Part shown: in pieces, positions 2,321 through 36,280 of the stretch
Layout of the letters: every line of letters starts with the position of its first letter
Position numbering within the stretch: the stretch's first letter is position 1
From: Acholoe squamosa
Lineage: Eukaryota; Annelida; Polychaeta; Phyllodocida; Polynoidae
DNA length: 64,000 nt
Assembly (NCBI GenBank): GCA_949317995.1
Contig: OX439052.1
Span: 36,085,932-36,149,931, forward strand
Direction of reading: 5' to 3'
Position numbers and translations under genes: made by a program
Notes under the pieces: model-generated
What the model was told of the DNA's origin: nothing
Databases searched by the model: none
Seen by the model: the letters and a program-made list of their open reading frames with translations, nothing else

Positions 2321-3706
2321 GTACATGTATTGAGTTAAGGGCTATAACAGGTTAGTGTTTGTGCTATGGTATGATAGTAATTACTCACTATTTGTCAAAA
2401 TATGTCAGTATCTATGGACTATTTGTAAGAAATTAGTTATTATTTGTTAGTAATTATTCACTATTTGTCAGCAATAAGTCAATACATGGTAGTAATTACT
2501 TACATTTTATCAGCATTTAGTCAATATATGTTTGTCACCAATAAGTCAATATATGTCAGTGCTTTGTCACTATTTGTCAGCAAATAGTTGATATATATCA
2601 GTACTTAGTCACTATATATATATCAGCAATTAGTCAATATATGTCAGTATTTACTCACTATTTGTCAGCCAAATCAGTCAGTACTTGGTCATTATGTAAC
2701 AGCAATTAGTCCATATATTTCAGTAAATACTCACTATTTGTTAGCAATTAGTCAATATATGTCAGTACTTCAATTATAAATACATGTCAGTATTTACTCA
2801 CAATCTGTCAGCAATTAGTCAATATATAACAGAGAAATAGCCATTGATTCAATTGTGCATCCTGCCTTGACTGGTATTTGTCAAAATATGCCAGTATCTA
2901 TGGACTATTTATCAGCAATAAGTTAATATATGTTAGTAATTATTCACTATTTGTCAGTAATTAGTCAATACATGATAGTTTTTACTTATATTTTATCAGC
3001 ATTTAGTCAATATATTTTATATTTTGTTTTATAATGACTAAGTACTGGCATATATTGACTGATTGCTGACAAATAGTGAGTAATTACTGACATATATTGA
3101 CTAATTGCTGACAAAGAGTGAGTAATTATTGACATAATATTTTATATTGACTAATTTCTGATAAATAGTGAGTAATTACTGACATTGATTGACATATTGC
3201 TGTCAAAGTGAGTAATTACTGACGTATATTGACTAATTGCTGAGAAAGAGTGAGTAATTACTGACATATATTATCTAATTTCTGATAAATAGTGAGTAAT
3301 TACTGACATATATTGACTAATTGCTGACAAAGAGTGAGTAAAATTACTGACATATATTGACTAATTGTTGTTATATAGTGACTAAGTACTAACATATATT
3401 GAGTAATTGCTGACAAATAGTGAGCAATTGCTAACATATATTGACCAATTGCTAGTGAGTATTTATTAAAATGCAAGTAAATACTAACATATATTGACTA
3501 ATTGCTGATGAATTCTGAGTAAATACTGACATGTATTGACTAATTGCTGATATATATTGAGAAATTACTGACATACATGGACCAATTGCTGACAAATATT
3601 GAGTAATTACTGATATATTTTGACTAATCCCTGACAAATAGTGAGTAATTACTCACTTTTGTCAGTGATTAGTCAAAATATACATGTATCAATATATGTT
3701 AGTATT

Positions 3707-3947
3707 TACCGTAATCTCTCGCGTATAAGACGCGTCTTCTAGGCCAAACAAATGCCTGGTGCGTCTTATAGGTTTTCCCAAAGAAGGGGGTGCGTCTTAT
3801 ACGAGGGGTAATTTTACTATAGAAATGTACTAATCTTACAATTTTCAGCCTTAAAATGTACGTCTTATATATATGCGAAAATGCATTTGCTGAGTTTGGG
3901 GTGCGTCTTATACGCGCAGCGCGTCTTATACGCGGGAGATTATGGTA
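3707..3947. mobile_element. MITE, CGCGTATAAGACGC family
   Basis: The unit begins TACCGTAATCTCTCGCGTAT and ends with its near reverse complement ATACGCGGGAGATTATGGTA. The interior carries repeated CGTCTTATA motifs and no coding frame. It sits inside the minisatellite. The family recurs at 6908-7144, 17066-17361, 19719-20754, 20988-21559, 42746-43041, 45758-46921 and 62622-62858. Confidence 0.75.
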
Positions 3948-4327
3948 GTCACTATATAACAGCAATTAGTCAATATATGTCAGTAATTGCTCACTATTTG
4001 TAAGCAATTAATCAATATTTGTCAGTAATTTCTCACTATTTGTCAGCAAATAGTCACTATATATCAGTATTTAGTCACTATATATCAGTCAATCTATGTC
4101 AGTATTTAGTCAGTATATAATAGTAATTACTCACCTTTTGTCAATAATTAGTCAAAATATATCAGTAAGAATTCACTATTTGTCAGCAATTAGTCAATAT
4201 ATGTTAGTAATTACTCACTATATAATAGCAATTAGTCAGGATATGTCAGTACTTAGTCATTATATATCAGAAATTAGTCAACACATGTCAGTATTTACCT
4301 ACAATTTGTCAGCAATTAGTCAATATA

Positions 4328-4945
4328 TGTGACCCATCAAGGGAGAACACCCCTCCGTGGGGGATTTCTAATTCTCCATTTGGCCACCAGGGGGCATTGG
4401 AGGGCAAAATTACTCTAAAATCAATATAAAAATACATTACGCCAATTTTTGATGCAGAATTCAATGGTTTCATTTAAAATGCACCATTTTTGGTAGAAAT
4501 GGCCCATATTTGGAGGGTAAAATGAACATTTTTCATGAGAAATTAACCTATATGCCTGTTCCTGGTTGCCATGGCAACCATTCCAATAATCAATTGTTAC
4601 ATATTTTTATGCCAATTTTTGGGGATACTCACCAAAAACCCAAAACTGAAAACAGAAATGGAAAATTCTTTCTAGATCAAAATCTATGATAAAAATCACT
4701 ATATTATTATGTAATTTTTTATGAAAAAGGCTGATTTATTGTATTTTTAGGCATTTTTTGTGGTTTATAATGAATTTAGAGCTTAATCATCGATTTCAGA
4801 TATGAATAACGACCTATGTTCAAGGAGGGGTTCTGACATAACTACTAGGAATATTTAACCCAATGATATCTCATTTTAAAGATCTTGAGATGGACTTTGA
4901 TAATAAATTTCCCTGCAGAGGGGTGTTTTTGTTTGCCTGGTCACA
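4328..4945. mobile_element. MITE with GTGACC inverted ends, about 618 bp
   Basis: This block interrupts the minisatellite and has imperfect inverted ends of about 27 bp, both starting TGTGACC and both containing AACACCCCTC at the inner edge. It is AT-rich and non-coding. The open frame that crosses its right edge into the minisatellite is chance. Confidence 0.6.
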
Positions 4946-5040
4946 TATGTCAGTATTTACTCACATTTTGTCAGCAGTAAGTAAATATATGTCAGTACTT
5001 TGTCACTATTTGTCAACAATTAGTCAGAATATATCAGTAA

Positions 5041-5584: not shown

Positions 5585-6065
5585 ATATCGTAGTGCCCCT
5601 CCCTACACTGTAAATGTGTGTGAAAATTTAACTGCCCCTCCCTACACTGTAAAAAATGTGTGTAGAAATTACACTGCCCCTCCCTACACTGTAAAAAATG
5701 CATTGAAATTACACTACCCATCCCTACACTGTAAAAACATGCGTTGAAATTACACTGCCCCTCCTTACTCTGTAAAAATGTGTGTAGAAATTACACTGCC
5801 CCTCCCTACACTATAAAAATGTCTTGAAATTACACAACCCCTCCCTTCACTGTAAAAAATGTGTGTTGAAATTACACTGCCCCTCTCTACACTGTAAAAA
5901 CATGTGTTGAACTTAACTGTCCCTCCCTACACTGTAAAAAATATGCGTTGAAATTACACTGCCCCTCCCTACACTGTAAAAACTGCGTTGAAATTACACT
6001 GCCCCTCCCTACACTGTAAAAACGTGTTGAACTTACTGCCCCTCCCTACACTGTAAAAAATGTGT
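5585..6065. repeat. Tandem repeat, unit about 41 bp
   Basis: About a dozen imperfect copies of a unit containing ACTGCCCCTCCCTACACTGT followed by AAAAA and a TTGAAATTAC segment. Units vary by small indels. No coding potential is seen. Confidence 0.8.
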
Positions 6066-7356: not shown

Positions 7357-10300
7357 GTAAGTTAACAATTCATTACATGGAATAAATAATATTCTTGGTC
7401 ATAGGATTTCCTTTTCCCAAATTTAGTTTTCTCCTTTTCAATAGCAAGGTTTTATGAACATCTGAACTATACAGATACAGAAAATATAATGCTGGTGGTT
7501 TCCATTTCAAGCTGGAGATATATCAAGCATCTCTGGCTCTGACACTGGAGAGAGTGCAGATGAGGAGGAGTCAGAGAAGGCGAAAAAGTTCTCCCTGCCT
7601 GAGCCGCTATTCAACCGGCACACCGAGGTGGATTCTGGACATAGCGAGGGAGAGATGTCTGCCCATGTTGAAGGTATAGGCCGCCGTCACCCACAAGTGT
7701 TTGTGCGGAACAAGCAGGGTCAGCTACTCTCCATTTATCGATGTGTCCTGCACGGAAAGAAGGTATGTGTGTTGATGATCCATATGAAAACAGCCCTCTA
7801 ACAAGGAATGTGTTAATTACAGTGTTTAGCATAGAACTAAGGTGCAGAAAAGTTGTATAGACAGTATATGAAAATAATAGAAACAGCAGTCACTGTTATC
7901 AGAATAAGTGCTCAGTATCTAACTGCTCAATTGTGGATAATCATCTGGAATTGAAGCTTACTTTCATATACTGATTGTATTTTTCTAGAATCAGCCAGAG
8001 ACCCAAGAGGAGCTAGTTTCCATGGTAACTGCTATGCCGAACCAGACAAAGTGGGTCATCCTGATGAATGCAGCCGGACATTTTGCTGCTGCCGTCTTTG
8101 ACAAGTAAGTCCCCCAGTAAACTTCAAAATCAATATTGTTACCTTGAGGCAGGCTCTATGTAACATGTAGTGGCCATACATGGCTACATGTCCATGTGTT
8201 CTCAATTGTCGGTGCTGTATCATCAACTTAACCACATATGAAATATGAGTATATACCCCAGTGAACTACTGCACAGGTCAATTTCCTATTAGCTGTCCCT
8301 CCCCAGCACTATTGTGACTAAATACCCAACACTGGTCAAGGTTTTGTCAGTTGGTAGGGGTTAGAGCTTGTGCATCTTTAGACTTCGCCCAGGTTTTAAT
8401 ATGTCAACATCAAGTGTCAGTGATCAATGTTGGGGTGCTGTATCTATTCCAACCGGTGCACCACTGGGCACAATGGAGAGCAACTCATCTGGGGAAGGGG
8501 AGGCCCCTATGGACTGTAAAAACACTGATAAAGCAGCGAAAAAAAGAATGCCTGACGAAGCAGGACTGTCTGATGACGATACTGATAGAAAACTGAGGGT
8601 CACCGAAGAAGCCCACCAACACCAGTCTAACAGCGGGGTAGCTGGTACTGCTAGCAAACCTACACTAACCCAGAACATCAACCCTGAGGAGCTGAGTTTA
8701 CTCACGCTAGCTAGAACTTTAGCCAGGATCGAGGAACGGCTTATCAGAGTCAACAACACTGGTCAAACTACTGCAAACGACATCAAGGAATTCAACGATA
8801 ACCTTTCAAGTGTGGCGGAGGATGTAGAAATCAACAAAGGCGACATCCAGGTCCTGAAGGAGCAAGTCGCTAAGCTCCAGACAGATCTAACGGAAACAAA
8901 GAACCAACTATCAGAGACGAAAACCAAGCTGGAGGAAACTGAGATACAGGTTAAAGGAAATAAGGCTCACCTCGAGAGAAATGAGGACAACACCATCAAA
9001 CAGGAAGCGTACTCAAGAAAATTGAACTTACTGCTGGATGGCCTCCCAGAAGGTGAAAACGAAACATCTGAAAGTTTGAGAGCAGAGTTGGGAAGAATCT
9101 TTTGGCGCCATGCAAAAATGGAGAGTAGCTGCATTGACGTGGCTCATCGCATTACGAGGAACCCTGGACAAGCTACAAGGCCTGTACTAATAAGGCTGAA
9201 ATTCCTGGATGCAAGAAATAAATTGTGGGGGCGAAGAGCACAGTTTAGGGACTACAAAGTAAACGGTGCCCAACTCTGGCTCAGTGAGGATATCCCTACC
9301 AAACTGAAAGGGGAACTAGCTAAAGTTAAAAAGACGTATTGGGTGGCCAAGAACCATGGCACTTACAGAGAGGTGAGAATGTCGGGCACATTCCTGTACC
9401 TCGATGGCAAGCTCTACAACAAAGAAAACTGGGACACTCTTCCTGAATATTTGGAACCAGAGGCTCTGGCCACACTAGAGAATGAGAACACTGTAGTTTT
9501 CTTCACCAAGGCCTCTCCTTTTAGCAACCACTACCCTGCTACATTTAAGATTGGAGACAAGACCTACACATCGATGGAGAAATACCTCGCCATACAAAGG
9601 TGCATTATCGCAAGGCGTGAAGACTTAGAGAGACAGGCATGGCAGCTGGACGTGCCTGCCAAGCTAAAGGGCATACTACACAAGTGCAGGGAAGAGCACA
9701 AGGACGAATGGATCGCTAAATCCAAGTCCATTGCAATGGAAGGGATTAGGGCTAAGGTCCAACAAAATCCACTCATTCGCCAGCGTCTCCTTAGCACAGG
9801 AAATAAGGTTATTGGTGAAGCCTCAAAAGACGCTGTATGGGGCATAGGTATGAGACTGACTGATAAGAACGCCTTAAACCAGGAGCTATGGTCTGGAAAA
9901 AACCTGCTTGGTAAAATTCTCCAAGAGGTGCGCCAGGAATTTGAGGATACTGCCTAACTTACTCGGTCCCAAAATGTGTACATGTATGTGTATATGTGTG
10001 TATTGATGGTAAACAACTGGGTATAACCATGTGGTGCTCAAGATTCATTCAACTTCGGGATGGATCGCAATAGTCTTAAATAAAATACCCAACAAAAATG
10101 AACATATAATCAAACAGCTCTCTCAGTTGCATGAGACGCATGGTCTATGGAGCAACTAAATGTGGATGCTCTACTTTTCTCTTCTTGTGTGTTTATGTTT
10201 ATCTGTTATTTGTGTGCGCAAGTTTATGTACATCATTTTGGTAGTTGTGTTATTGTATTTTGTTTCTATGAGGTGCCAACAGAATGTTAGCAAGGCTTAT

Positions 10301-13300
10301 ATGATGATATATGAGTATTGTACCCTCACAGCGTGGCTGTGGATGATTCTAAGACAACTGAACCTAAAAAGTAGAGTTATTGGTACCCCACAAATTCTGT
10401 GTAAAACCAAACATAATATTCTGAATCCAAAAGGTTATGACCAATAACACAAGAGTGATTAACCTATGCTCTTTTAATGTTAATGGCATAAGGGTGAGAG
10501 ATAAGCGAAGAGCTATTTTCAAGAAGCTAAAGGATGAAAGTTATAATATTGTCTTCCTTCAGGAAACCCACTGCACAGCAGAAGTAGAAAAGATTTGGAA
10601 GGCTGAGTGGGGTGGTGATATAATATGTGCAAATGGCAGCTCATCATCCAAAGGTGTAGCCATACTCTTCAATAGAAATTACCCTTACAAGTGCCTAGAA
10701 AAGACACTGGATGCCAATGGGAGGTATATTATATTGCACATCAAGGTTCAGGGAGTGGATTATGTCTTATGCAATATTTATGCTCCAACACAAAACTATG
10801 AAGCAGACCAGATGGCTGTATTAGATGAAATATCAGATAGATTAAAAGGCTATGAAGTTGAAAACTTTCTCCTTGGAGGCGACTTTAATGAAACCCCAGG
10901 CCCATATATAGACAGAAGGGCAACCAATAGTATAAGGGCAGCTAATAAGCAGTATAGGAAGCAAATATACAGTCTACAAGATACTCTCAGCTTAGTGGAT
11001 ATATGGAGAGTTAGACACTCTAATTTACGTAGATATTCTTTTCATAGGCAGGAGCAAGCATCCAGGATAGATTTCTGGCTAGTGTCTGAGCATTTGACAG
11101 GCTTTGTTCATAAAACAGATATCCGTCCTGGAACGCTATCTGACCACAGTAAGGTAAAACTGGGAATCTCCAGTGCTGACCAGGACAGAGGCCCAAATTT
11201 TTGGAAGTTTAATAATACCCTTCTCTCAGATAAAGACTATGTGAATCAACTTAAGACTATGCTTGGAAAATGTAAGATAGAATACCAGGATCTGGCACCC
11301 AATGCGAAGTGGGAGATTCTGAAGTATGAGATAAGGAAATTTTCAATTAATAACAGCAAAAAGAAGAAGGCAGAGTCTAAAAAGGTAGAGAGGGAGTTAA
11401 CAAACAGTCTGGGCAAATTGACTGCAGCCTTTGATGAGGGCCATGATGTAATTGATGAAATGGAAATTGTTAAGAGAGACCTGAAAGATATTGAATTAAA
11501 GACAGCTAGAGCCATCATGTTTAGGTCAAAAGCGAATTGGTCCCAGGTAGGTGAACGACCAACCAAATACTTTTTGAATTTAGAAAAAAAGAATTTTATG
11601 GACAAACTTATTACTCAACTGAAAGATCAAAATGGGCATATAGTCACTGAATGCAAAGATATCCTTAGCGTACAGAAGCAATTCTACAGAAATCTATACT
11701 CAGATAGCTATAGAGTTGTCCCTTCACAGATACAAACAACTTAGCTGTCTTGTCTGACAACCAGAGAGAGATGATAGAGAGACCCTTATCAAAGTCAGAT
11801 TTTCTCAACAGTCTTAAATCTTTAAAGAATGGGACGTGCCCAGGCACTGATGGGCTAACTGCAGTTTTATAAGTTCTTCTGGACTGATATTGGGGATGAT
11901 GTTAGTCAAAGTCTACTCTATGCCACAGAAACGGGCAGCTTGAGCCAAGAACAGAAACGTGGCATTATAACCCTTATCCCTAAAAAGGAAAAAGATAGAC
12001 TCCAGCTAGGAAACTGGAGGCCGATCAGCCTGCTGAATACAGACTATAAGATCTACACCAAGGCCCTGGCAGAAAGGATAAAACCCCACCTCCCTAGTAT
12101 TATAAGCTTAGATCAATCTGGATTTGTTAGGTCAAGGTATATAGGAACAAGTATTCGCACAGTTGAAGATATATTAGCATACACCACAAAGTTAAGTCGC
12201 CCTGGTATTCTGATGGCGGTGATTTTGAAAAAGCATTTGATAAGATAAGGTGGGAGTTTATCTTTAAGGCACTTGAAAGGTTTGGATTTGGGGAAAAATA
12301 CATCTCATGGGTCAGGATATTATATAAAGACATTGTTGCCTGTGTCATAAATAATGGGTACACAAGTACCTGTCCAAAAAGAAAAGAAAGGACTTAATGT
12401 CCGAGAAACCTTGAATGTCTGAGTTCCTCGATGGCCCCCGGACGTAAAACTAAACAAACAAACAAACACAAGTGACTGGTTTGAACTTGCATGCGGAACC
12501 AGACAGGGATGCTGTCTATCGCCTTTTTTGTTTGTTATTGCTGTAGAACTGTTAGCTCATAATGTACGCATGAATGTAGATATTAAAGGTATAAGACTTG
12601 GTACTAGAGAAGTAAAGATATGTCAATATGCTGATGATACCACTTGTTTTATCGAGTCAGCAGCAGGTCTACATCACCTGCTGGACTGTTTGAGAAGGTT
12701 TAGGAGGTACTCTGGTCTGAAGGTAAATAGATATAAGACACAATATCTTGCACTTGGTGGTATTGACACTAGTCAGACCGGATTGGAGGGTCTTGCATGG
12801 AGCGAAAGATTGATTGTCCTGGGCATCTCTGTAGCACCGAATAGGACAGAAGCCCAAAATTACTCGTGGAACTTTGAACCCCAGATACAGAAAATCACCA
12901 GCATAAGTGATGATTGGAGGCACCGCAACATCTCACTCAAAGGTAAAACTATCATCATAAACAGTCTAATGCTACCATGTGTGATGTTCCCGGCCTCAGT
13001 CACCACTACACCATCTAGAGCAATAGATGAAGTCAATAGAATTGTTGACAGATTCCTATGGGGCTCCAACAGGAACAAGGTAGCCAGGGCACGTGTTCAG
13101 GCACAGACTAAGCATGGTGGACTTGCAGTAGGCAATTTTAAAACGAAAATCATTGTATCTAACATAAACTGGATCAAAAGGTTCTATTGGGATACCACCA
13201 TGGTTCCATGTGATTTTATTAAGTTATTTCTCCATGAAGTGTCTGACTTGAAACTGTTTATTCATACAAAATCAGATATTAACATACCACGAGAAGCAAG

Positions 13301-16300
13301 CCCATTCTATTATCAGGTTCTCAAGGACTGGCATGAATTCCAAAATGTCTCACTAGTAAGAGGTCCGTAATGAAGTATTGTGGAAAAATAAGTTTATTAC
13401 TATCAATAATACACCAATATTTTGGAAGTCTTGGAGGGAAGCTGGTATTGTCAGGGTTGAAGATTTACTGGATAATGGAAGTTTTATGTCAGACACTCAA
13501 ATTTCTCAAAGGTATGGTGTTCAGTGTAACTTTCTTCAGGCTCTACAAATTCGACAAAGTATACCAGGTAGCTGGAGAGCTAGCATATCCTGTGACGAAA
13601 TTCAAAGGCCAAATGACTGTATTTGGGTCATTGATAATAACCCAGATGTAGATCTCTTTTCAACATCAAGCAAGAAATTGTATTGGATAGTTCTATACCG
13701 TCACTCACAACAAATGCCAAGGAATGAAATGAAATGGGCAAAAGTCTTTCCTGAGGTCAAATTTACAAAGGTTCCATGGTATGACATATATATATGTCCA
13801 TACCAAGTGAGTAGGGAAACAAAGTTACAATCATTTCAATATAAGGTACTCCATAAAATACTAGTTTGATATACGTGCAAAGGAAAACCCAGAATGTATA
13901 TATTGTGATGGTAAGACTGACACTCTTGATCACTTCCTTGTGAAATGCCCCCCAGTAGTCTACTTCTGGAAGTTAGTCGTACGATGGATAAACACTGTTG
14001 CTAAGATTGATACAGGGAATTTAGATGAGCATGAATTGATACTTGGATTATGTAGAAAAATTCCAAATGGTGATATCATCAACAATGTAATGCTTAGAAC
14101 CAGGTTTTACATTTATAGGCAGCGTTTGTATCACAAGTGCCATCTTGATCTGTTGCAATGGATAGGAGAGTTTAAACACTCTCTTCTCTCAGAACAATTT
14201 ATATGCAGTCTGGAGAACAAGCAAAAGAGGTTTAGGAAATGGGAGGCTATTTTGGACTCAATGTAACTGCTATGCATACACTGAAAGAACCCTAGTATCT
14301 CACTCATAGCATACTTCCTAGATAGGGGAACGGAGCTGCGAAAACTGTATCGATGTAGAGGTATATCAGTATCTAGTCTCTATCACTAGTCATATAGAAC
14401 ACATCTATTGTCATACTCACTATAATAATGCACTATGTATTGTCCTGTGGTGTTTATATAACAAAATATCAAAAAATGTAGCGAAGACCTGTATAGCTAT
14501 AGACATTTTTTTTTAAAATAAAAAATGAGCGCTGCTCTATATATATATAAAAAAAAATATTGTTACCTAAGGGGTTTTATACCAGTATTATGTATGAAGT
14601 TAACTGTCAATCCCGGTTCAGCATCCCTCAAGGAAACCCTAGTAAACATCCATCCACAGCTCAGCCTTTCAAAGTTTTTGTTATTACTCCAGGAAAATTC
14701 CAAATTTAATGATCTAAAATTCTAGTATTAGTAGAAGAAATTAGGAATTCAAATTGTTCATTGTGACACATATTTATCTCTGTATATCAGGGGAGTGGTA
14801 GTGGCACATAAGACATTTCATCGCTACACGGTGAGAGCTAAGCGTGGAACAGCACAGGGGCTGAAGGACAAACAGGGCGGTGCGATACACTCTGCTGGGG
14901 CCAGTCTACGCAGATACAATGAGGCTGCACTATCTCAAGTATGGTTAAAGTTTGTACACTTTACAGGGATGTAAGTTCTCAGAATTTGGTCTGATTTCAG
15001 AATTTTCAGAGTTTGAGCTGCCTATTAGATATACCCAAATTTCTTTTCTCAGAACAATTTTTTGTTGGCAATCATGCTTGAACTATTACCGAGCCCACAA
15101 TTGTTAGAATAAAGTGAATATTACTCAGACTTCTCAGTACTCTAGTTATCCCATACCTTAAATCATTGACCAGATTAAACTATTTTTGAATATGAAATAT
15201 GAGGATTGAATAAACATCAATTGCAGGAAGTGTCTGAGCTAATTTCGAGTTGGTCTGAGCACATGGAAACATGTGACAGGATATTTCTACGTGCCCCCAG
15301 CTTTAATCGAGCAATATTCTTTGGAGGGAAGTATCCACCACTGGACAAGAAAGATACCCGGATACGCCTCATTCCCTTCCCAACCCGCCGCCCCACTTTT
15401 AATGAGCTGCAGAGAGTCCATACCGTCCTGGCCGCCATTGAGTGTTATGGTGAGAAGTCTGATTAAAATCTGATAATTAAAGATGATTAGTTATACAAGA
15501 TAGTGAATGAGAGGGCGTATAGTGATCTCTATCATACTTACATATATATAAACATCTGTCCCTATGAACGTTTTTATAGGTTCAAGGGAAATTAAAACTT
15601 TATTGATTTATCAGGAAGGTTTTCCCCCCTTTGGGGTATTCAATTTTTTCATTATTGCTAGAAAACTTTAGCAATCACTTCTGCTCCAGTTTGATATACA
15701 GTATAACAGAGTTAACTTCAAGTCTTCTGTGAGGATATATAGTTCAAAAGTACTGCACCCAAAAGGTTTCTCAAATAATCCTACTAGGGATTTGATATCA
15801 TATTTCCTTCTCAAATATTTTCAGTACATTTCAGTTGGAAGGAAATATGTTATATGTTTGAACAGGTGAAGACGATACAATACACGACCACATCAAGACT
15901 TCACCAAAACGTGCTGCATCATCTCAGCCCAAGACCTCCATTCAACCTCGGGTACAGAGTGAAATGGTACCGAGTGATACACAGAAATCATCAGACAACA
16001 CTCAACAAGGTAAGCACGGTTATATATCAGAATTCCCCAGTTTTATCATTTAGTAATGCACCATTGCTTACATATTTAGCTTGCCGGTTGGAGCTGTGGT
16101 AGGGTGGTAATTTTGTACAATGGAGCCATCCATAAATGATGTCATGCAAAATTTGACCATTTTTGACCCCCCCTCGTCACGTTTTTTGCCAAATTTGCAA
16201 TGCTGAAGGTATATAAAAAAAAACAATTCTGTCACGCCGAGCCTGACCCCCCCCCCCCTCCAGCGTGACGTCATTTGTGGATGACCCCAATGTACATATT

Positions 16301-19300
16301 ATAACCCCCACGCCTTGGGTACTGCAGAACTGCCTTTATTACAAAGATAGTGATAATCTGCTAGTAATCTAAGTACCGGTAGTACCCGGTAAGGTCGTAT
16401 TCAGCAGTGTACTGTAGATCTATATTTCTCTCTTCTTATAATTTACTGTGTTTGTTATATGACATGAAAAATCTGTTGATCACAGTTGCATTTAGTTTGT
16501 TAAGTTGCTGTTATGTTGGATCTATTGCTGCAACAGCTACAGGTACAACCCAATCTGCATGTTCTGTTAGATGTTTCAATTTCACTTGAGTGAATTTGTT
16601 TCCTCTTTCTAGATGACTGGGACAACGAAGATGAGGAGGTAGAGCTTGTGGCATCACTAGAGACTATCGACCTCACCCAACTTAATCCATTTGAATCTAC
16701 CAAGAAGCCAAAGAAGAAGAAAACAAAAAAGCCAAATAAGGATACGGAACCTGCCATTGTGAAAGCAGCTAAAGAGGATGCTAAACCTTCTACTCCCTTG
16801 ATAGAATTTAGTAAGTTGGCATAGGGTAGATTAACCTAATGACAGCCACATACCTTGAGACTTCCACCCCCAGAAAATAGCCATAACATTGGGTTTGCTA
16901 GTGAATCAGCATTACCAACTAGTAGATCCAATGCTCATCAACAATTTCATAATGTTGATGCAGAAGTCTATTTTTCTTTGCAAATATGTTCGGTGGACGT
17001 CTCAAGGTATGTGGCTGTCTTTAGGTTAATCTACCCTGGGTGATTAACATGTATGCTGACTTTGCTACCATAATCTCCTGCATATAAGACGCATCTTATA
17101 CGAGGGGTTTTAGTTCTCCTTGGACCCACAAGGGGGACACCAAGACCTTTCTTTTGATATGTTATATGCCATAATGGTCATAATAGGGCATAAGGGGGCC
17201 CAGGGGGGTTCAGTGGGCCAAAGCTACACGCAGGTTTTTAAATTTTGAAAATTCACTCAGTAGAACCAAAGTTATGAATTTTTCACTTTTTTTGAGGATT
17301 TTCCAAAACTCTAGGTGCGTCTTATACGCGCACTGCGTCTTATACGCGGGAGATTACGGTAGTTTAATTATCGGCCAATGAAATAACACCAACTATTCAC
17401 TGCGGTCCTCTCGGGGGGCAGTGGTACGCATCAGTTAACAGTTATCAGTGATAAGACCTGGGATCCAGCTTCAGCAGTGGCCGCGCCCATTGGACAATCT
17501 GCTACCTCGGTATACATGAATATCTTTTAGAATATTATATGCCCAGCCATTTGTGTCTTGGAGTAGGCTTTCAGGAGAAGGTCTCAAAGAGGAAAACAGT
17601 GGTTATAAAAAAATAGGGGGAAATATTTTTTATATTCATATTCTAAGGCTCTCTGTATCTCTATGTATAACATAAGATATATATTTATCTGAGTAAATTC
17701 CAGATTTACTCAGATAACTCTTAACCTCACTCTAAATCCCATTACAGGCGATGAGGAGTATGCTTTGCGAAACGAGCTCTACACAGCGTGTAAGATCGGC
17801 AATGTAGAACGGCTTCGGGAGATCCTCTCACCACTTAGGCCAGAAGATGCCAATGAAGACATATCACAGAATATAGATTCACAAGATGAACCTACGCCCT
17901 CTCAGAAAGGACCAGATAATGCACATACTGTTATAGAAAGAGACTGTGGGTATCTACCTGAGAAGAATTGTTCTAGTAAAGAGAATGACTCTGGAGGTTC
18001 AATTATCAAAGCAGAACCAACAAAAGGCTGTGAAGATATACCTAAGTGTGATAAGATTGCAGGCCCAAATGAGAAAGCTGCAAAAATGGTAGTAAAGGTA
18101 GAGCTGTTAAATGCACCATTTGGAGAGTCGCGGCGTACATTGTTACACGTGGCTGCGGGACAGGATCACGCGGAAGCTGTAACATGTTTACTGGAGGCAG
18201 GCGCTGACCCAAGTTTAAGGTAAGAAAATCCCCCATGTCTTTACTAAAGTCTTTATGAACCGAGTAATAATTAAAGAGTTTTAAGAGTTTTTATTGGGTC
18301 TAATGATACATATAGACAAATAAAATTAATTAAATGATATGTATGATATGGGCATGTTGCCCTACTTATGTTAGTACCCCTTTATATTTCATATATATGA
18401 TCTAGACATTTATATCAGGTATAGCAGGAGAAATACAGTGGTTTCAATATCAACAGCAGAGAAACACAGTTACATATTTCGCTATTTTTGAATGAGATGA
18501 GATACTACTGTTCTTAATGGTGAAGATCAAAATTGATAAAAAAAAGAAACAGGCCTTTTTACATGAAACAAGCAGGGTAGTCCTCCAGAATTTTCTTTTC
18601 AAAGACCTTGGAACATTTAATGGTGGTATAGTCAGTCTTAACGTCATTCCACATACTTATAGCCCTGTAGTAGGAGCTGTGTAGGAACAAGGGTTTTAAG
18701 AATGGGGTAGAATCAACCTAATACCCTGATTTCTCCTTGTAGGGAGATTTCTATTATCTACCAAATTTTGAATATCTTTTAGCCTGAAGGCATATGCCAG
18801 AAGGTGTATATCTCTTCTATTAATTAATTTCTGGCACCCACTCTTTTCATGCAGCTGGGCTGTAGTGTACAGGGGAAATTCCTTGAGGTTAACTTTGTAT
18901 ACAGATCTCAAACCCTTGTTTTGTAATAAATGCAGTTCTTAAGTTTCACCCCTATAATCCCTATTCCATACATAGTCTGCATAATCCAGTACTGGCAGCA
19001 CAAGTGTTTTATATATAATGAAGGCAGTATCATCATTAGTATATTTTCTAACTCTATATAAGGCCATTCCAAATTAATAAATTGTTCTATGGATTTTCTG
19101 TTTTAGAAAAAGAGGCTGGAGGGCGAAATTTTTATTTTATTTTTCTAGGAAAAATTATTTGTCTGGATTTTGCATGGCCAAAATGTGGAGAGGGCTATTT
19201 TTTTTTTTTGGTGGCGGGGGGGGGGGGGTCCCTTGCTTAAAATGTTCATTTTGCTTTAAGTGCAGAATAGGCCTATATAATAAAACCGGTGATATCTTTA

Positions 19301-22300: not shown

Positions 22301-25300
22301 GAAGTGGTCCGACTCTGTCGAGAGGCAGATCCAGACTAACGCCTTCCCCGGCCCCAGGTAGGAGCTGGAGCGAGGCGAACATTGCTGCCACCACCCCGCA
22401 GCGACCAGGGGTCGTAAGGACCTCTAGTGACTACCGGTGATGGGCGCACCACTCGAAACGCCCTCTCGAGGAAGACGCTCACACTATATTACGATCTACG
22501 AGCCCCTACACTACCCCCACCAGAATAAGGAAAGGGGTGTACAAAAAACATATTTAAACTAGAACGATTTCCTTATTCTACATTAAAGGGCTCGATGTAA
22601 TAAACAAGAGTGAGTGAGTAATAGATGTTTAAAGCCATTTCGACAGCTAAGGTCATATTCATGGAGAGAACCTCATTACAAAATTTCACAGAGGAATGTG
22701 TCAGTGCCCGCGCATATGTGCACCACACACATCCTGAGGGGATAGGAAAGAGGAGAAATAGACCCTTTTAAGTGGGCTAGGGAAGCCTGTAATAAACAAG
22801 AGTTCGAAGTAGAACATGATATGTTATTTGTGTGACGTGACGTCTTAATAGTAGGAGTCGACCACATAGAATTATTTTAAGGTAAATTAAATATAACAAT
22901 ACACTATAAACATAATTAGAGAAGGATTGAGACAAGTTTGAAAGAACATGTTTGAATCCGTACATTAGAGTATTAACGTATGTTATTAATGACATACCAT
23001 GTTCGTAATTATTTATAGTAATATATGTTACCTAACCCGAAAAGAAAATTTTTATAGTTCATGTTGTACTATATTTATTAGTTTTTTTAACACAGTTTAC
23101 AGTAACTGTGGTTTTTTTTTACATTTATATATACCACTATTAACCTGAAGTATTATGTGAACACATTAGGTTGGTACCTGAGAAGTGTTTTTAAAGCAAA
23201 TGTACATAGTTCGAGTTACAGATCTTGTAGGTTTGTAGCACCTACTGGGGCTGGATCTGGGGTTATAGCCGCAGTGGCTACTTCAGGGGTTGGGTTCGGG
23301 GTGTCGATAGGGTTGACGGTGGCAGTGGTCGGGGCAGCAGTAGCAGCTTCAGGTTCCCTTTGAGGTCTGACTGGGTGTCCAGGCTCAGTGGCAGACTGCT
23401 TCGGGGTGGGCACACTCATGAATCCAAAGGATTCAATGTCTGCCTGGAGCTGTCTGGCCTCCTGGAGTTTGCCCTGGAGCTTCTCGAATGCACTTTCCGG
23501 AGTGCCATCCAAATCCTTCATGAAGCAGCCGAATGCTGCCATGAATCGAACGTCCTGATGGTCATACTGCCTCCATAGCTCCTGAAGTTCGGTTTCAGAC
23601 CTGGTTTCGCGAATTTGATGCATTTGAAATTTTGGAGTAGGGTGATTTCTCTTTTTATGGGTATACTATGGGTGTGGATGGTTACTATTGCAGAGGTAAT
23701 TTTTCTTAAATATGTAAACTGTTGCCATGGTTACCAATGCAATTTGGTACAATGTCAACAATTGCTCGGTTGTCGTACCTACTTGCAGCACAGGTACAAT
23801 TCTGTTATCTAACTATCTATTGTATGTCCATTTTGTGCACCCACATATCCACTATGTACACCCCTAATTTCACAGTTGTGCCATGTATAGGTACAGAGCT
23901 ACAAGGGGAAACATCACCCCACTCCAAGGGATGCTCAAGGTATCTGGAGTTGACTCGGTGAGAGACGGCTCCGTTTCGGTGGTGTCCATTAGCTCAACTT
24001 CTGGACTTCGGGGTGCCTCGTCCTGGGCTCGAAGTGGGGTCGGGTGCCCATCAGGACTGGCCGTTACGGTCGCCACCACCTCTGACTGAGCCATATTTCG
24101 GGCTCAGACGGTTCAGGGTTTGCCCTCCTTCGTACAGAGACTAAGGTAGTGCAAGTTAATTGGTGGTATCTGGATTCCTTTGCTATAGAGGCTTGAGAGA
24201 AAACAGCGGCACGTCTTACCCCTGTAAGACGGTTCGCAAGCTGTGAGCGATATTAGGGTCACAACAAGCGAAGCGGGACCAATGCGCATGCGCCACTGCA
24301 CTGCGCCGCTCCTAGTCCCCGGTTCACTAGCGCCCCCTTTCGGTTGTGGCAAGCGTCCGTACTACCCCGGATAACCGAGGTTCGAGGCTTGGTGTTTTCA
24401 TAGGCCGTTGGTGGGACTACCCTCTTCTCTGTTTATTTCGATGGGAGTTTGGAAGAAAAACATGTAGCATCATGCGTACACCCCAGGCTAGCTGTCTGCC
24501 ACCCACAGGAACCATAAACAGGGTGGTAATACGCATCATGGTTGTATTTCGAATCATGGTCGAGGTATCTCAACCTCCAAACACATAACAAGACATGTAG
24601 ACAGGACTATACACTCATTGTGATTTCGGAACATTAACCCATTAAGGCCTGATGTTGAGAATACTCAACATCCATGTAGGGGCGGATGTTGAGTATTTTC
24701 AACACCATGTGGGGGCTGATGTTGAGTATAATCGACATAGATATATTATGTGGCAGCCATGTTTGGAAATTTGAGATAGACTTAAGTGTATTGCTATTTT
24801 TGGTATGATGATGTTTGATACCTATTTTGGGGCTGAGGAATTCAAATCTGAGAATTTTACAGTGATAGAGACATTGTGAAATGGTTGAAAATGATATCAA
24901 AGTCATGGACAGTGTATTATACCATGCACCCTCCCGCCCCCTGGTAAATGTACTGCTCAAAATTCAGTCCCCTAGCCTTCTAAAATACTCTCATAGCCAG
25001 CCCTTAATGGGTTAAGTAACGGCAGTCCGCCCAGGAATTCTGGGACTGCACCTCACCTCTCTTATCTTTGTTTTTCAACTGAAAATCTCGAGAAGGTTTA
25101 ATGGAAGGTGCCAACATCTTCCTCCTACCTCGGATTCTCCGTTCCGCCGAGACATTTTTATCACGATTAGATTTTGAATCCGTGTCAGTGTCGACCCCTT
25201 AGGTTTATCGTCACCTACCTTTTTACAGGGTCAGCCCCTTTTTTGTCTCAGGGCATTCTCCTTCAGTTTCCTGGCTAACTCGTTGGTCCTCATTAGGACC

Positions 25301-28300
25301 TCATCTTTTTCTTCATTCAGCTTTCTTGAAATTTTCTCACACTCGAAGACAGCGGCGTCACGCCCTCTCCATCTTCTCAATCTGCATACATCAGACTTAT
25401 TCATTCGACCTGTCGCCAAGCTCATAAGCATAACTGTACTCTCTGATATGATCTGGGTGACCACATGAGGCCCGTCCCAGCTCGAAACTAGTTTCTTACA
25501 CCTTAAAGGTTCATGTATCCTAAAAACTCGATCACCAACACTGAATTGACGTATCTTCAGGTTAGTATCATATCCAATCTTCTGCCAATTTGCATTCTTT
25601 AGTAGCTCATTTCGAACTATCTCATATGCTCTCTTAAATTGATCTCTTAGAGATTCCACAAACATCACGTTACATGGGGCTTCAGGGCTTACCCATATAA
25701 CACCATATACGAGATCTGCAGGCATTATAATATCCTCCCCAAAGACTAATAAGTTGGGGGAGCAGCTCGTTGCAGAATGTACAGTACTATTGTAAGCGTG
25801 TACCAAGAAATCACATTGTTCGTCCCAATCGTCTTGGCAAGAATTTACCAAGGGTTTTAGGACTTGTACCTGACCATCAGACTGGGGTCTGTATGGATTG
25901 GTTCGAGTTTTGCAGATGGCTAGAAAATGGCACATTTCTTGCCATAAGTTAGACTCGAATTCTCTTCCTTGATCACTGTGCATCTTTAGTGGTGCCCCTA
26001 AATGTAGAACCCATCCTCTCACGAAGGCACTTGCGCAAGTGGCTGCCTTGTGGTCGGGTAAAGGGTATACTCGAGTACACTTGGTGTTATTAGTCGGTGA
26101 CTACCATCATGCAAGTATTCCCACGGGGGGTAGGTTCGATTCCGTTGATGATATCAATCGCTCCTCAAGCAAATCGGACACCAAAAAGCTCCTGGCATTT
26201 TTCCCATTCCAGGACCAGGTTTATTCTTACCACATTCGGGGCAGCTCATCACCCATCTTGTGATGTCATTGTGCATTCCCGGCCCACTACGAGCAAGGTG
26301 CTCTAGGGTGCTCTTCCAGAAGTGTCCATTGGTTTTATGTCCATGACAATAGAACATAATGTCTCGCCTTAGTGACATAGGTATCACTATCTGTAGAACC
26401 TTATCCTTAGTACGGCAGGTTTTCCATCGACACAGTAACCTGTTCCGAACTTCTAGCTCGGTCCATTGGGCTAGAAATTTACTAGTTTATCTGTCTTCGA
26501 GGGACAATGCAGGCCGTTCAGGCTTTGCATTGGTGTTCAGGAATGAAATCACTCTCTTGATTGCGGGGTCAGCTTGTTGGAACTGTTCGATAGTCTCTGT
26601 TGGCCATTCTACAACATTTTCCATACAGGCATACGATAGGGGTTCGATCTGTCCGTTTCGAACTGTAGCAACTACCGCAATGTGGGCTCCACAATCAATC
26701 TTCTGGCATTTTCTAATGGGCCTTCGGGATAGGGTGTCCGCATAAACATGCTTCGAACCCGCTCGGTGTTGGATCTGGCTATGTTCCAACCCAAATTCTG
26801 ACAGGTGTGCCAGCCAACAGCCAATCATTCCTTCGGCGTCCTCAAAGTTAAGGAGCCACCTCAGGGAGGAATGGTCTGTTCGAAGTGTGAAGTGTCGAAA
26901 CTTTTTAGTGTACACCACCACAGACAGCAACTCTGAGACAGGGCTGCACCAATGCTATCATTGCTAGCGTCAGTGTCCAGTCTGCTGTAGGATATTTTAA
27001 TTCTGGCGTGTTAGCGTGTTTTATTTGCTCGAAGGCTGCACTTTCTTCATCACCCCAGGGAAAGCGCTCTTTTGCCCTACCTGGAGTCCAATGTGCTAAT
27101 GTCTGTTAAGGATAGCTCACTTTAGAATAGTTTGGGAGGAAATCTCGGTAGTACGAGCAGAACCCTAGGAAGGATCTTATTTCCTTCACGTTTATGGGTT
27201 TCTGCCACTCGGATACTGTCCAGAGTTTTTCAGGGTTGGCTTTTACGCTGTTGGGAGTTATTATACGACCAAGATAAGTAATAGATGTTTTAAATAGATT
27301 ACATTTCTTAGCCTTTAATTTCAGACCATTAGCTAGTATCATCTTTAGGACTAACTCGAGGTTGTGAATACAGTCCCCGAAAGTCTTCCCGAATACTATG
27401 ACATCGTCGAGGTATACCAAGCAACTCTTCCAGAGAAGGTCACTTAGCATCTCCTCCATCATAGCCTCGAAAGTGGCTGGTGCATTACACAGCCCAAAAG
27501 GTAAGACGTACTGAAACAAGCCCATGTGGCTCGAGAAAGCAGTTTTCTCCATGTCCCTTGGGTCCATCCCGATTTGCCAATACCCGGATCGGAGATCCAG
27601 GGTACAAAAATATTTGTTGCCCCCTAGAGAGTCCAAGGTCTCGTCCATCCTTGGCAAGGGATAGGAATTCTTTTTAGTCAGACGGTTCAACTTCCGGTAA
27701 TCTGTGCAGAATCGGATAGATCCGTCCTTCTTCGTAGTCATACACACGGGGCTAGGCACAATAACCCCCTTTTCCAACTGATCAAGAATTTGCCCCTCGG
27801 CCTCCATTTTCTTTTTCAGAGGTAGTCTCCGATAGGGTATTTTGAATGGCTTCGGATCGCCAGTGTCAATCGTGTGTAACACCTTGCTAGTTCGACCTAC
27901 CGAACCTCCATGTCTGAGTTCCTCGATGGCCCCCGGACGTAAAACTAAACAAACAAATCCAGGTTTCCCGAAGGCTTCATAGAAGGTAGCAAGCAAAGCT
28001 CCAAGCCTTTCCTTTTCTGACTTATTTGTCAGGGAAGAATCCTCTACCAACTTCTTTAGGTCGTCTGGTAACCCTCGGACTACGCCATCAGGCAGTTCAG
28101 TCTGAAATTGAGCTTCCGAAATATGTTCAACCAAGAACATCTCACCAATTTTCACATCTTTCTTAAAATAAATAGGGGTTCGTCCTCTATTCATAATTGG
28201 AACTAATTCTCCCCCTGTGGAGTGGGGACCTTCATGTGAGGGCATGGAGGAGCAGAATAACTTCATTGGGAGTCCACGAAGGAGGAATTCTCCTTCCTTT

Positions 28301-31300
28301 CTACCAGTGGGCATACCAGATTCGTAAAAGGCGACAAACTTGGGGTTTCTTGTGGCTTAGGGTGAGCATGTGGGCAGCTGGTGTCCATATGCGCGGGCCC
28401 GGGCCTACATGCTTGTCTTTTGCCATGGGATTCCCCCTCAGTGAACCACGTCTGAGTGATCAAAGGCCGTGGTTTGTCTGGCCCTGCCTATGGGACCAGG
28501 CAAATAAAAGAACACTTGCTATCCTTCGAAAAGAGTAGGGGAATGAAGCCCCGGTAGCGGTTTTCCCCCTCAACCCTCCTCATAGATGCGGTCATTCATC
28601 TCATAGATTCGATCATTCATAGATTCGGTCACTGCTGTGTCGGGCAAGCAGCATATACATACCTGTCCAAATAGAAAAGAAAGGACTTAATGTCCGAGAA
28701 ACCTTGAATGTCTGAGTTCCTTTATGGCCCCCGGACGTAAAACTAAACAAACAAACAAAAAACTGTCCACGATCCATTTCCCACTAGAGTATCGGCAGAT
28801 TCTAGCTGCAGGCTAGATAATACCTCGGGGTTAGGTTCGAACACGGCGTCCGATCCTCTGAAAGCGCTGTTCGAAGAGCACAGAAGAACATCACAGGCCA
28901 TTCCAGCTGTAATTTTCAGTCTGTACTATGGTGGCTACAGAAGACACATGTCTCAATATACATGGGATCTCGCAGTTGTATGGTTGCCGAATTTTCAACA
29001 TCCCGAAACAGGGATCCAACACAGGGCCATACAAGCTTGCGAAATCCAAACCGATTATTCCATCGTCACTTATGTCCGCAATGGTGGGACTCATCTCTTA
29101 CTCATAGCCCCCCATTCCAATCTGTATGAACGTCTTGCCAAAAGTCTGCATCTGGCTACCGACGGCCGTGCAAGCATTAACACCAACAGGTAGTGTTTCA
29201 TGGTTGCTGGACACCAGATTGAAGAATTTTCTTGAGACACACGAATGGCTGGCACCAGTGTCAATCAAAAATTCTCCAGTCTGCTCCTCCACCGATACAG
29301 CAATGTACCAACACTTCCCCCCCAAAGGAGAGGAGTTCTGTGCGAATCTGAGTTGTTCCTGAGAATCACCGATCTCCCATCCAAAACCCTTCAAAAAGGT
29401 TACACATGGATGGTTCGGGGGGAGATGTGCCGCACACACTCGCGTCAACTCTTCAACCCAACCTCCCTCTTATTCAACGCAGGATCTCTCCCCTTGGTTC
29501 CGACCCTCATTCGTCCCTACCCCGTCGAAGCCCCCCGGCTCGGACTGGGATGGAGGAACCTTCCCACATACCAGTCTCCCGGAAGGTACTGACTCTCCAA
29601 CTGACTCACCAGTGGTGGCATTTTGGCAGATTTTTGAACTACGGATCACATCCTTTGCCACAGATGTGACCCTCTTTAGTTTTCCTCTTCAGGCTTCTCC
29701 TCTTCATAGTTAATTCGGGATAGCACAGGTTTTGGGGCCGTGCACTTATGAGCATAGTGCCCCATCTCTTGACAACGGTAGCAGCGTAGCCTGCCTTGAT
29801 CTACCCTTCGTTGTTCACGGGCTTCCCTAGCCCACTTAAAAGGGTCTATATCTCCTCTTTCCTATCCCCTCAGGATGTGTGTGGTGCACATATGCGCAGG
29901 CACTGACACATTCTTCTGTTAGATTATCAACCTGTGAAGCACGGGATAGCCACTTAGTGCCGCTAAAGTGCTGTAAAACACAAATCAATCGATCAATCAA
30001 CCTTCGTCGTTCAGGTCTAGTGTACATCGTCTCAGCGAACGTTTTCATGAAATCTTCCATCATCTTTTTCATGTCCAGCGGCTCAGGTGGAGCGGGGACT
30101 CTCGCTAGGGGTTGCCTCGGAGGGCGGCTTATAGCCATCTCTGTAGTTCGATTATCTGAGGTGGGTCTTGTCTCCCCTCGAGGTCCGCTAGCGTTTTGGT
30201 TGTATATTCTTTGAGGAATATACTTGCGTTTCACATCTCTTTTTACTTGTATGGCGGAGATGCTTCCATCCTCCTCAATTTCAATGATCTCGATATCATT
30301 ATCTACTATTTCCGGGTGTGTCAGTTGGTGTATCCCTGACATAGGGGTCGTACTAGTGCTAGTACTCGCGCAAACTTTGGTACTCAAGGTCTTCATTTCT
30401 ACTTTCCCTGCCATGAGGGTCTTTTTCACTGTCCAGCACTCAATTCCTTCGAACAGATCCATAAGGTTGGGGTTTCTACCCTTCCAAGCATCTAAGGCTG
30501 CTTGCTGTTGGTCTTCATCTCAAAGTCCTTGCACGAATTGTGGTAACAAATCGTTCAGAAAGTATTTGTCCGAGGGATTGGCCCTCTGTAACAGAGACTG
30601 TAGCTTGTATCCGTAAGCTCGAAATGATTCCTGAGGTTTCTGGGTTCACTTCTTGAAGAGCATGAAAGGATCTTCACTCACTAGGTTGTACAGCAAAATG
30701 CTGGCAATCTCGACTAGCTGCTGGAATGCCACTCTTTCGAAGTATACTTCATTCCTTTTCTCGACGGCTATCCGGCCTGGACCGTGTTTCAGGCAGCGAA
30801 TCAGGTGTGGCAGGGCCTCCTCGGGGGTCCATGCATTGCATCGCATGTCGTCAGTGAAGTTCGAGAACCATTCTTTCCAGGTTTTTACGCCCGCGTAAAT
30901 CTTTGGAAGGATGGCCTGTCGTCTAGCTGCGTTGTTAATGCGTACCAACTTTTGACATTGGTTGACACTCCATTCCCTGATGGTCTCTTCACTGTGTGCG
31001 GTGTTCGAGGTGTTAGCGGATTGATTTAACATATCCTCTAGCACGCTGCTTGGAAACCTGCTCTTCGAAGTTCCTCCTGTGGCACCACTAGCCCATTGCT
31101 GAGGGGGGTGTCGGCCCTCGGGTGGCACTGGATGCGCTGCCCCCAGTCGCGCCTTGGTTTCCCGTGCCTAAGGGTTCAGGCTCGTTTACTGAGTCGTCAT
31201 CATTTGACAACTCGAAGTGTCCATCCTCCCCATACTGGGTGTGGTTGGGTTCGTTGTGGCTGTCATCCTCTTAACCCAGCAAATCCCTGGCCCTGCTGAA

Positions 31301-35645: not shown

Positions 35646-36280
35646 AAGGAGTTGATTGATTGATTTGTTTAACGTCCTAAGGCCGTAGGCCTCATGGGAC
35701 TGCCTCATTGGTAGTGAGTGAGTGAGTAATAGATGTTTAACGCCATTTCAACAGCTAAGGTCATATTCATGGCGAGAATGACATTACACAATTTCACAGA
35801 GGAATGTGTTGGTGCCCTCGCATACGTGCACCACACACATCCGGATAGGAAAGATGAGAAGTAGACCCTTTTAAGTGGGCTAGGGAGGCCCGTGTTGAAC
35901 TTACACTGTCTTGTTAAAATGTCAGTGCCTAATCATTATTTGTTGGCAATTAGTCAAAATATATCAGTAATTAGTCACTATTTGTCAGCAAATAGTCATA
36001 ATATGTCAGTAATAGTCACTGTTTTTCAGCACTTAGTTAAAACATGTCAGTACTTAGTCACTATTTGTCAGTAACTAATCAAAATAAGGTCATATTCATG
36101 GCGAGAATGACATTACACAATTTCACAGAGGAATGTGTTGGTGCCCTCGCATACGTGCACCACACACATCCAGATAGGAAAGATGAGAAGTAGACCCTTT
36201 TAAGTGGGCTAGGGAAGCCCGAAACGTCCAAAGGTGGTAACACCTCATGGGACTGCCTTATTAGCATGTCGACATTGTCG
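35646..36280. repeat. Repeat cluster: SINE fragments and minisatellite patch
   Basis: 35646-35712 is a SINE-like tail (GATTGATTTGTTTAACGTCC...CTCATGGGACTGCC). 35713-35892 is SINE-A in reverse. 35925-36085 is a patch of the 2390-5040 minisatellite. 36087-36221 is a second, truncated SINE-A. 36226-36280 resumes the first fragment type. A related fragment is at 44424-44485. Confidence 0.7.

What the first reader, a model, noticed from the sequence alone, without database searches (positions are those of the whole stretch)
9487..9945. NADAR enzyme domain built into a LINE ORF1 protein
The C-terminal 150 or so residues of the ORF1 protein match the NADAR signature along its whole length ([52 protein letters not shown]), and key polar positions are intact. 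NADAR enzymes cleave N-glycosidic bonds, including removal of ADP-ribose from guanine. Fused to a coiled-coil RNA-binding ORF1, it would ride on the LINE RNP. Inference: the element may erase host ADP-ribosylation of its RNA or cDNA, or use NAD-derived signals. I do not know of an established description of this fusion.
Basis: partly seen in the sequence, partly recalled or inferred. Interest (0 to 1): 0.88.

Follow-up and report, generated by a model that had tools for sequence, protein, structure and literature searches.

The report
LINE ORF1 protein carrying NADAR domain
A jumping gene in what looks like an animal genome carries, fused to its RNA-coating protein, an enzyme domain of a kind known to strip ADP-ribose from DNA; such fusions were already noted in print for oyster LINEs, but this genome holds many young copies, on at least three different kinds of LINE.

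The parts
8132..8144 (.). 5' copy of the target-site duplication AATATTGTTACCT
   Evidence: D6; ends one base before the independently found 5' boundary at 8146
8146..14555 (+). Full-length LINE, L1-like group, in an intron of a VLRF1/ANKZF1-like host gene, same strand
   Evidence: homology with other copies starts at 8146 in 4 of 4 and ends at 14554-14557 in 3 of 4; the fourth, L025, stops matching at 13906; host exons
8401..9957 (+). ORF1, 518 aa plus stop, uninterrupted (start taken at the ATG as in the homologue P0001; the listed ORF starts at TTG 8368)
8683..9015 (+). Coiled-coil helix, residues 95-205
   Evidence: coiled-coil Pfam matches are below their cut-offs
9019..9471 (+). L1-type RRM and CTD, residues 207-357
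9472..9954 (+). NADAR domain, residues 358-518; E393, R400, K423, W437, E473, D477, W480 correspond to E43, K50, K75, W89, E125, D130, W133 of the Phytophthora NADAR
10437..11744 (+). ORF2 endonuclease part and the stretch before the RT
   Evidence: Exo_endo_phos E 3.9e-15; human L1 ORF2p E 4e-31 over residues 1-424
11940..12248 (+). ORF2 RT, first open piece (ORF2 is broken)
   Evidence: RVT_1 E 2.1e-10
12368..12465 (.). 98-bp insert inside ORF2, absent from the four copies compared
   Evidence: gap in 4 of 4 alignments (12373-12465 in L026)
12528..13370 (+). ORF2 RT, second open piece, with the YADD motif
   Evidence: RVT_1 E 3e-8
13378..14266 (+). rest of ORF2, in two open pieces (13378-13869 and 13940-14266)
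   Evidence: no Pfam match for the first piece, the second not searched
14556..14568 (.). 3' copy of the target-site duplication, after a TA/A-rich tail

Best explanation
The window holds an L1-group LINE whose ORF1 protein is a type II ORF1 (coiled coil, RRM, CTD) with a YbiA-type NADAR domain at its C-terminus. ORF1 copies would coat the element's RNA as coiled-coil oligomers, so the RNP would carry many NADAR units next to its RNA and nascent cDNA (inferred from the L1 ORF1p fold). The NADAR unit most likely works as an N-glycosidase that removes an ADP-ribose-type adduct, plausibly from guanine, placed on the element's nucleic acid by a host transferase acting as a defence; this lets reverse transcription proceed. 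Shown: the fusion, the predicted fold, the retained glutamates, recurrence and purifying selection. Inferred: catalytic activity, substrate, and the counter-defence role.
For: Domain and fold. Pocket: among 22 ORF1-NADAR proteins, the window's included, E43 is E in 22 of 22, E125 is E in 19 of 20 with a letter there (D in one), K75 is K in 21 of 22, W89 is W in 19 of 20; the 10 rows from this genome (1 class A, 7 B, 2 C) all keep E43, K/R50, K75, W89, E125 and D130. Equivalent positions were shown to matter: D171 (=E125) and K95 (=K50) mutants lose hydrolysis in E. coli C7 NADAR (PMC11543638, section 12 read); E, D and W positions matter in C. elegans SNA-3 (PMC9303266 passages). Selection: NADAR pairwise dN/dS 0.263 over 41 copies; in three pairs of class B families synonymous sites are saturated (0.80-0.93) while nonsynonymous differences are 0.23-0.31, and NADAR is more conserved than RRM-CTD in 25 of 28 protein pairs. 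Retention: NADAR sequence follows the RRM in 20 of 20 further copies found with the RRM query. Chemistry: NADARs, eukaryotic ones included, remove ADP-ribose from guanine (passages). Writers exist in animals: shellfish CARP-1 modifies guanine N2 and has been proposed to act in innate immunity or NAD+ control (PMC8053099 passages).
Against: No activity was measured. R79, which contacts the pyrophosphate of ADP-ribose, is R in only 2 of 21 ORF1-NADARs against 15 of 16 stand-alone ones, so the ligand may differ. K50 is Arg in the window; the equivalent K95R in E. coli C7 NADAR worked in vitro but did not rescue from toxicity, and E88A (=E43) had only a minor effect in vitro, so that glutamate alone is weak evidence. 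D130 is D in only 14 of 20, and class B has lost W133 in 7 of 7. In the copies found with the RRM query NADAR dN/dS (0.443) is no lower than that of the whole ORF1 (0.433); these were chosen from outside the best NADAR matches and many are decaying. The host search with the Scabin-like family found nothing, but no control rang, so it says nothing.
Confidence: 0.5

Rival explanations
1. The NADAR domain is catalytic but acts on RNA ends or small molecules: NAD-derived caps, ADP-ribose phosphates from RNA repair, or another N-glycosidic nucleotide, so it processes the transposition intermediate rather than countering a defence.
For: NADAR is associated with RNA processing (PMC9503650 passages; SNA-3 trans-splicing factor with NADAR domains); the 2025 paper suggests RNA processing for the TE versions; loss of R79 in most ORF1 NADARs suggests a changed ligand.
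Against: Guanine de-ADP-ribosylation is the activity shown for NADARs outside riboflavin synthesis in the passages read. No result here separates the substrates.
Confidence: 0.27
2. The NADAR domain is a non-catalytic binding module: it grips ADP-ribose or nucleotides, or helps ORF1 assembly or RNA packaging.
For: Several ligand contacts have changed (R79, R93, Y84; K50 is R in the window and Q or M in 2 of 22).
Against: Both ribose-contacting glutamates are almost invariant across very distant copies (22 of 22 and 19 of 20); a mere scaffold would not need them.
Confidence: 0.18
3. The fusion is an accident of one copy or a passenger domain without function.
For: The window copy is itself broken in ORF2. 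In RRM-found copies NADAR dN/dS is like that of the rest of ORF1.
Against: 31 of 134 matches of this family lie in open frames of 500 aa or more; related fusions in 21 other proteins; strong conservation between families.
Confidence: 0.02

Closest known systems
Tx1 LINEs of Crassostrea gigas with NADAR in ORF1 (PMC12477816, Genome Biol 2025; the three passages with NADAR read)
   Same: LINE ORF1 with a YbiA-family NADAR domain
   Different: Their sequences were not at hand, so no direct comparison was made. The passages read give no pocket analysis, selection test, copy numbers or other LINE groups for that fusion.
NADAR domain at the N-terminus of Pol in Ectocarpus Gypsy elements (PMC12477816)
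   Same: NADAR captured by a retrotransposon
   Different: LTR element, in Pol and not in ORF1
Human LINE-1 ORF1p and ORF2p
   Same: Coiled coil, RRM and CTD of ORF1; ORF2 EN and RT best match L1 among solved structures
   Different: L1 ORF1p ends after the CTD (recalled); here a NADAR domain follows
Stand-alone NADARs: E. coli YbiA, Phytophthora NADAR 8bau, DarT1-linked NADAR
   Same: Predicted fold; E43, E125, W89, D130 and W133 positions
   Different: Fused to ORF1; in the window R79 and R93 are lost and K50 is Arg. In the tree 52 of 54 stand-alone NADARs, host ones included, group apart from all ORF1 forms (93/72); YbiA and 8bau fall among ORF1 rows with weak support or unresolved
Type IV (esterase) ORF1 of CR1/L2 LINEs (PMC4120745 passages)
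   Same: Class C ORF1 found here ends in an esterase-like region (weak SASA match)
   Different: Class C also has a NADAR in the middle; the window element has no such region

Membership tests
NADAR superfamily (PF08719) | Profile match over the whole domain above the curated cut-off | tested here: met
   95.7 bits vs 35.1; profile 9-162 of 163
NADAR superfamily (PF08719) | YbiA fold | tested here: met
NADAR superfamily (PF08719) | Functional E43, K50 and E125 (Phytophthora numbering) | tested here: inconclusive
   E43 and E125 kept; K50 is Arg in the window, a change tolerated in vitro but not in vivo in another NADAR
NADAR superfamily (PF08719) | Pyrophosphate contacts R79 and R93 as in the ADP-ribose complex | tested here: not met
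   His and Ser in the window. R93 also varies among stand-alone NADARs, so this bears on the ligand rather than on membership
NADAR superfamily (PF08719) | N-glycosidase / de-ADP-ribosylation activity | not testable with these tools
   needs an assay
YbiA subfamily of NADAR | Glutamate (not Asp or His) at position E125 | tested here: met
   E473; rule from PMC11125620 passages
L1-group LINE | Type II ORF1: coiled coil, RRM, CTD | tested here: met
   type definition from PMC4120745 passages, which also find it in CR1, L2 and R1 clades
L1-group LINE | APE-type endonuclease and RT closer to L1 than to other solved LINE RTs | tested here: met
   L1 E 4e-31 for the window's 10437-11741 piece; family RT in L021: L1 233 bits, best R2 71 bits
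L1-group LINE | Target-site duplication and A-rich tail | tested here: met
   13-bp duplication at the independently found boundaries; TA/A-rich tail
Tx1 clade | RT phylogeny with Tx1 references | not tested
   no Tx1 reference sequence was at hand

The most novel reading that the evidence does not exclude
NADAR is a standing counter-defence module of animal LINEs: ORF1 NADARs, marked by kept glutamates and loss of the R79 contact, have come to sit in ORF1 of at least three LINE lineages in one genome (L1-like class A; class B with a very different RT but the same RRM-CTD-NADAR ORF1; class C with NADAR plus an esterase-like region), and they erase a host modification of retrotransposon nucleic acid.
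Probability: 0.3. Interest if true: 0.85.

Novelty: new member of a known kind. Interest (0 to 1): 0.6.

Why it matters
If the domain is active, LINEs carry an enzyme against a nucleic-acid modification, which would point to ADP-ribosylation (or a related mark) as a host weapon against retrotransposons in animals that have these elements, and would give the animal NADAR domain a role. It is directly testable: one purified domain, a known substrate, a catalytic mutant. Its presence on three RT lineages also makes it a case of enzyme-domain traffic between LINE ORF1s.

Tried and rejected
Single-copy accident: rejected. Recent capture of the host's own NADAR gene: not supported; the two host stand-alone NADARs (L011, L012) group with bacterial NADARs and are 28-29% identical to the window domain. 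One origin for all ORF1 NADARs: neither shown nor rejected (AU p 0.367; in the smaller tree the 18 stand-alone and host rows separate from all ORF1 rows at 93/88, short of the starred level). A virus source: a viral-contig scan with the ORF1 alignment kept two loci; I read only L001, a stand-alone 210-aa NADAR frame. A Scabin-like transferase in the host: PF22596 (accession recalled, name confirmed by the call) found nothing, and no control genome rang either, so no conclusion. Clade name Tx1 versus L1: no reference available. Class C esterase: only a weak SASA match, E 0.0023, below cut-off; no PDB match of weight. The low dN/dS of intact NADAR-picked copies (0.155 in 16 copies; 0.154 in 22) is biased by how they were picked; the RRM-found copies gave 0.443 and are biased the other way. 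An ungapped look at phosphate contacts led to no ligand assignment.

Full report

The element. Four other copies share homology with the window from 8146 on; three match to 14554-14557, and the fourth, L025, stops at 13906. The 13-bp sequence AATATTGTTACCT stands at 8132-8144 and 14556-14568, just outside. The flanking exons match the VLRF1 release-factor domain, split at the LINE: profile 1-17 before it (E 0.013, below cut-off) and 22-68 after it (E 8.1e-20); an ankyrin match follows at 17765, so the gene looks like ANKZF1 (name recalled). ORF2 encodes an APE-type endonuclease and RT but is broken in this copy, and carries a 98-bp insert that the four compared copies lack. The first ORF2 piece matches human L1 ORF2p at 4e-31, and the family's RT (L021) matches L1 with 233 bits against 71 for the best R2.

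How common. In the window's genome (1.48 Gb, 63 contigs) the first look with PF08719 gave 3224 candidates; the best 150 were scored and 150 matched; by my count of the listing 143 of 150 have no stop inside the stretch. A search with the RRM-CTD part of this ORF1 gave 134 matches, some of them pieces of one locus (150 of 320 candidates scored); by my count 31 lie in open frames of 500 aa or more with no stop in the match. Sixteen complete ORF1s, the window's included, are 97.4-99.7% identical in DNA, so the family was active recently. I took 20 further copies from the RRM list that are absent from the NADAR list; 20 of 20 have NADAR sequence behind the RRM (coverage 42-100%), several with frame breaks, stops or losses.

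Selection. Over 41 copies (two more divergent ones, L067 and L069, left out of 43) pairwise dN/dS is 0.263 for NADAR and 0.345 for all of ORF1. In the RRM-found set (18 copies and the window) it is 0.443 and 0.433; in the NADAR-picked set (22) 0.154 and 0.253. Both sets are biased: the first was taken from outside the best NADAR matches, the second from among them. In the 41 copies, NADAR variants seen in eight or more copies are all synonymous (7 of 7), while rarer shared variants include 10 amino-acid changes. Over longer times selection is clear: in three pairs of class B families (L022/L014, L016/L018, L036/L018) NADAR has 0.23-0.31 nonsynonymous differences per site while synonymous sites are saturated (0.80-0.93), and among the eight proteins of alignment A2 NADAR is more conserved than RRM-CTD in 25 of 28 pairs, 35.0 against 27.3% mean identity.

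Relatives. Three searches of the large genome-and-metagenome protein set gave P0001-P0041; each scored only the 7997 candidates sharing most words. P0001-P0019 and the partial P0021 and P0034 match both the RRM/CTD profile and NADAR: 21 proteins. P0020 and P0022-P0033 are NADARs without that profile match, two of them (P0020, P0027) with a macro domain; P0036 also carries a Pfam NADAR label but was not used. P0035 and P0037-P0041 match the RRM profile and have no Pfam NADAR label.

Three classes in one genome. The 20 best-scoring loci were read at length: two host stand-alone NADARs (L011, L012), four of the window's class A (L017, L021, L025, L026), eight of class B (L013-L016, L018, L022-L024) and six of class C (L019, L020, L027-L030). 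Class B ORF1s match the RRM-CTD profile of class A and then NADAR (61-73 bits for L016, L018, L022, L023, L024; 49 for the partial L013; 13 for the partial L014; the L015 frame starts inside NADAR). Class C ORF1s do not match that profile; NADAR lies in the middle and the C-terminus is esterase-like by a weak SASA match below cut-off. A search with that C-terminus gave 82 matches (92 of 92 candidates scored). ORF2 comparisons between different loci of one class give 472-2264 bits; A against B gives at most 55 or nothing, A against C 52-58 (nothing for the partial L017), B against C 18-102. So the RTs are far apart: class A is much closer to human L1 than to B or C. For class B (L022) the best solved match is R2 (46 bits) over L1 (31); for class C (L027) L1 (97 bits) over R2 (69).

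Pocket. Against the Phytophthora NADAR (residue roles from PMC11543638, section 12 read), the 22 ORF1 NADARs, gaps set aside, keep E43 in 22 of 22, E125 in 19 of 20, K or R at 50 in 20 of 22, K75 in 21 of 22, W89 in 19 of 20, W or Y at 133 in 19 of 19, and D130 in 14 of 20. R79 is R in 2 of 21, against 15 of 16 in stand-alone forms. Classes B and C in this genome show the same: glutamates kept, R79 replaced by Asp or Asn in 9 of 9 rows; class B has also lost W133 in 7 of 7. In the mutant data read, the E125 position and K50 matter most; Ala at the E43 position had only a minor effect in vitro. This fits an active site with a changed grip on its ligand; that is inference.

Origin. A tree of 82 NADAR domains holds 28 ORF1 forms and 54 stand-alone ones: 18 of 80 fetched bacterial and 18 of 80 fetched viral-contig loci, picked for under 62% identity, plus host, protein-set, L001, YbiA and 8bau rows; partial ORF1 forms P0015, P0018 and P0034 and near-identical class C rows were left out. 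Fifty-two of the 54 stand-alone rows form one side of a branch (93/72); YbiA joins three ORF1 rows weakly and 8bau is unresolved. One clade for all ORF1 forms is neither rejected (p 0.367) nor shown, and long branches are many.

Known before. Searches 'NADAR' + 'retrotransposon' (20 of 104 papers listed), 'NADAR domain' (all 15 listed) and 'YbiA' + 'transposable element' (both listed) show one relevant paper, PMC12477816. Its passages report NADAR in ORF1 of several C. gigas Tx1 LINEs and in Ectocarpus Gypsy Pol, and suggest RNA processing. The window's fusion is therefore a further member of a reported kind. In those listings and passages I saw no report of NADAR on other LINE groups, of the esterase-like combination, or of selection or pocket data; the paper's supplements were not read.

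Mechanism. ORF1 would place many NADAR units on the RNP. NADARs, eukaryotic ones included, remove ADP-ribose from guanine (passages), and shellfish have a guanine-modifying transferase proposed to act in immunity or NAD+ control (passages). The counter-defence reading joins these; it has no direct test here. The host of this window is not identified, and my search for a Scabin-like transferase in it is uninformative.

Noticed in passing
L027, L028, L029, L030, L019, L020 (own genome): Class C LINE: ORF1 with NADAR in the middle and an esterase-like C-terminus; in L027 and L028 a 1167-aa open ORF2 frame follows directly after the single stop codon, in the same reading frame.
   Followed up: partly
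L013-L016, L018, L022-L024 (own genome); also the ORF1s L036, L037: Class B: RRM-CTD-NADAR ORF1; where ORF2 was compared, its RT is far from the window's L1-like RT, suggesting ORF1 exchange between LINE lineages.
   Followed up: partly
L011, L012 (own genome): Two stand-alone host NADAR genes, 65% alike in the domain, grouping with bacterial NADARs.
   Followed up: partly
P0020, P0027 (public protein set): Macro domain fused to NADAR; P0027 stands for 271 sequences.
   Followed up: no
window 12368-12465: 98-bp insert in ORF2 absent from the four copies compared; a short repeat (ACAAGT) stands at both sides, SINE-like by eye.
   Followed up: partly
window 25231-31829 (-): Open frames that read by eye like a broken Gypsy-type retroelement (RT and integrase motifs).
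   Followed up: no
window 2418-4330, 4940-5039 and 35919-36086: Arrays of 21/42-bp tandem repeats that look alike.
   Followed up: no
window 5594-6065: Tandem array of CCCTCCCTACACTGTAAAAA-type units.
   Followed up: no
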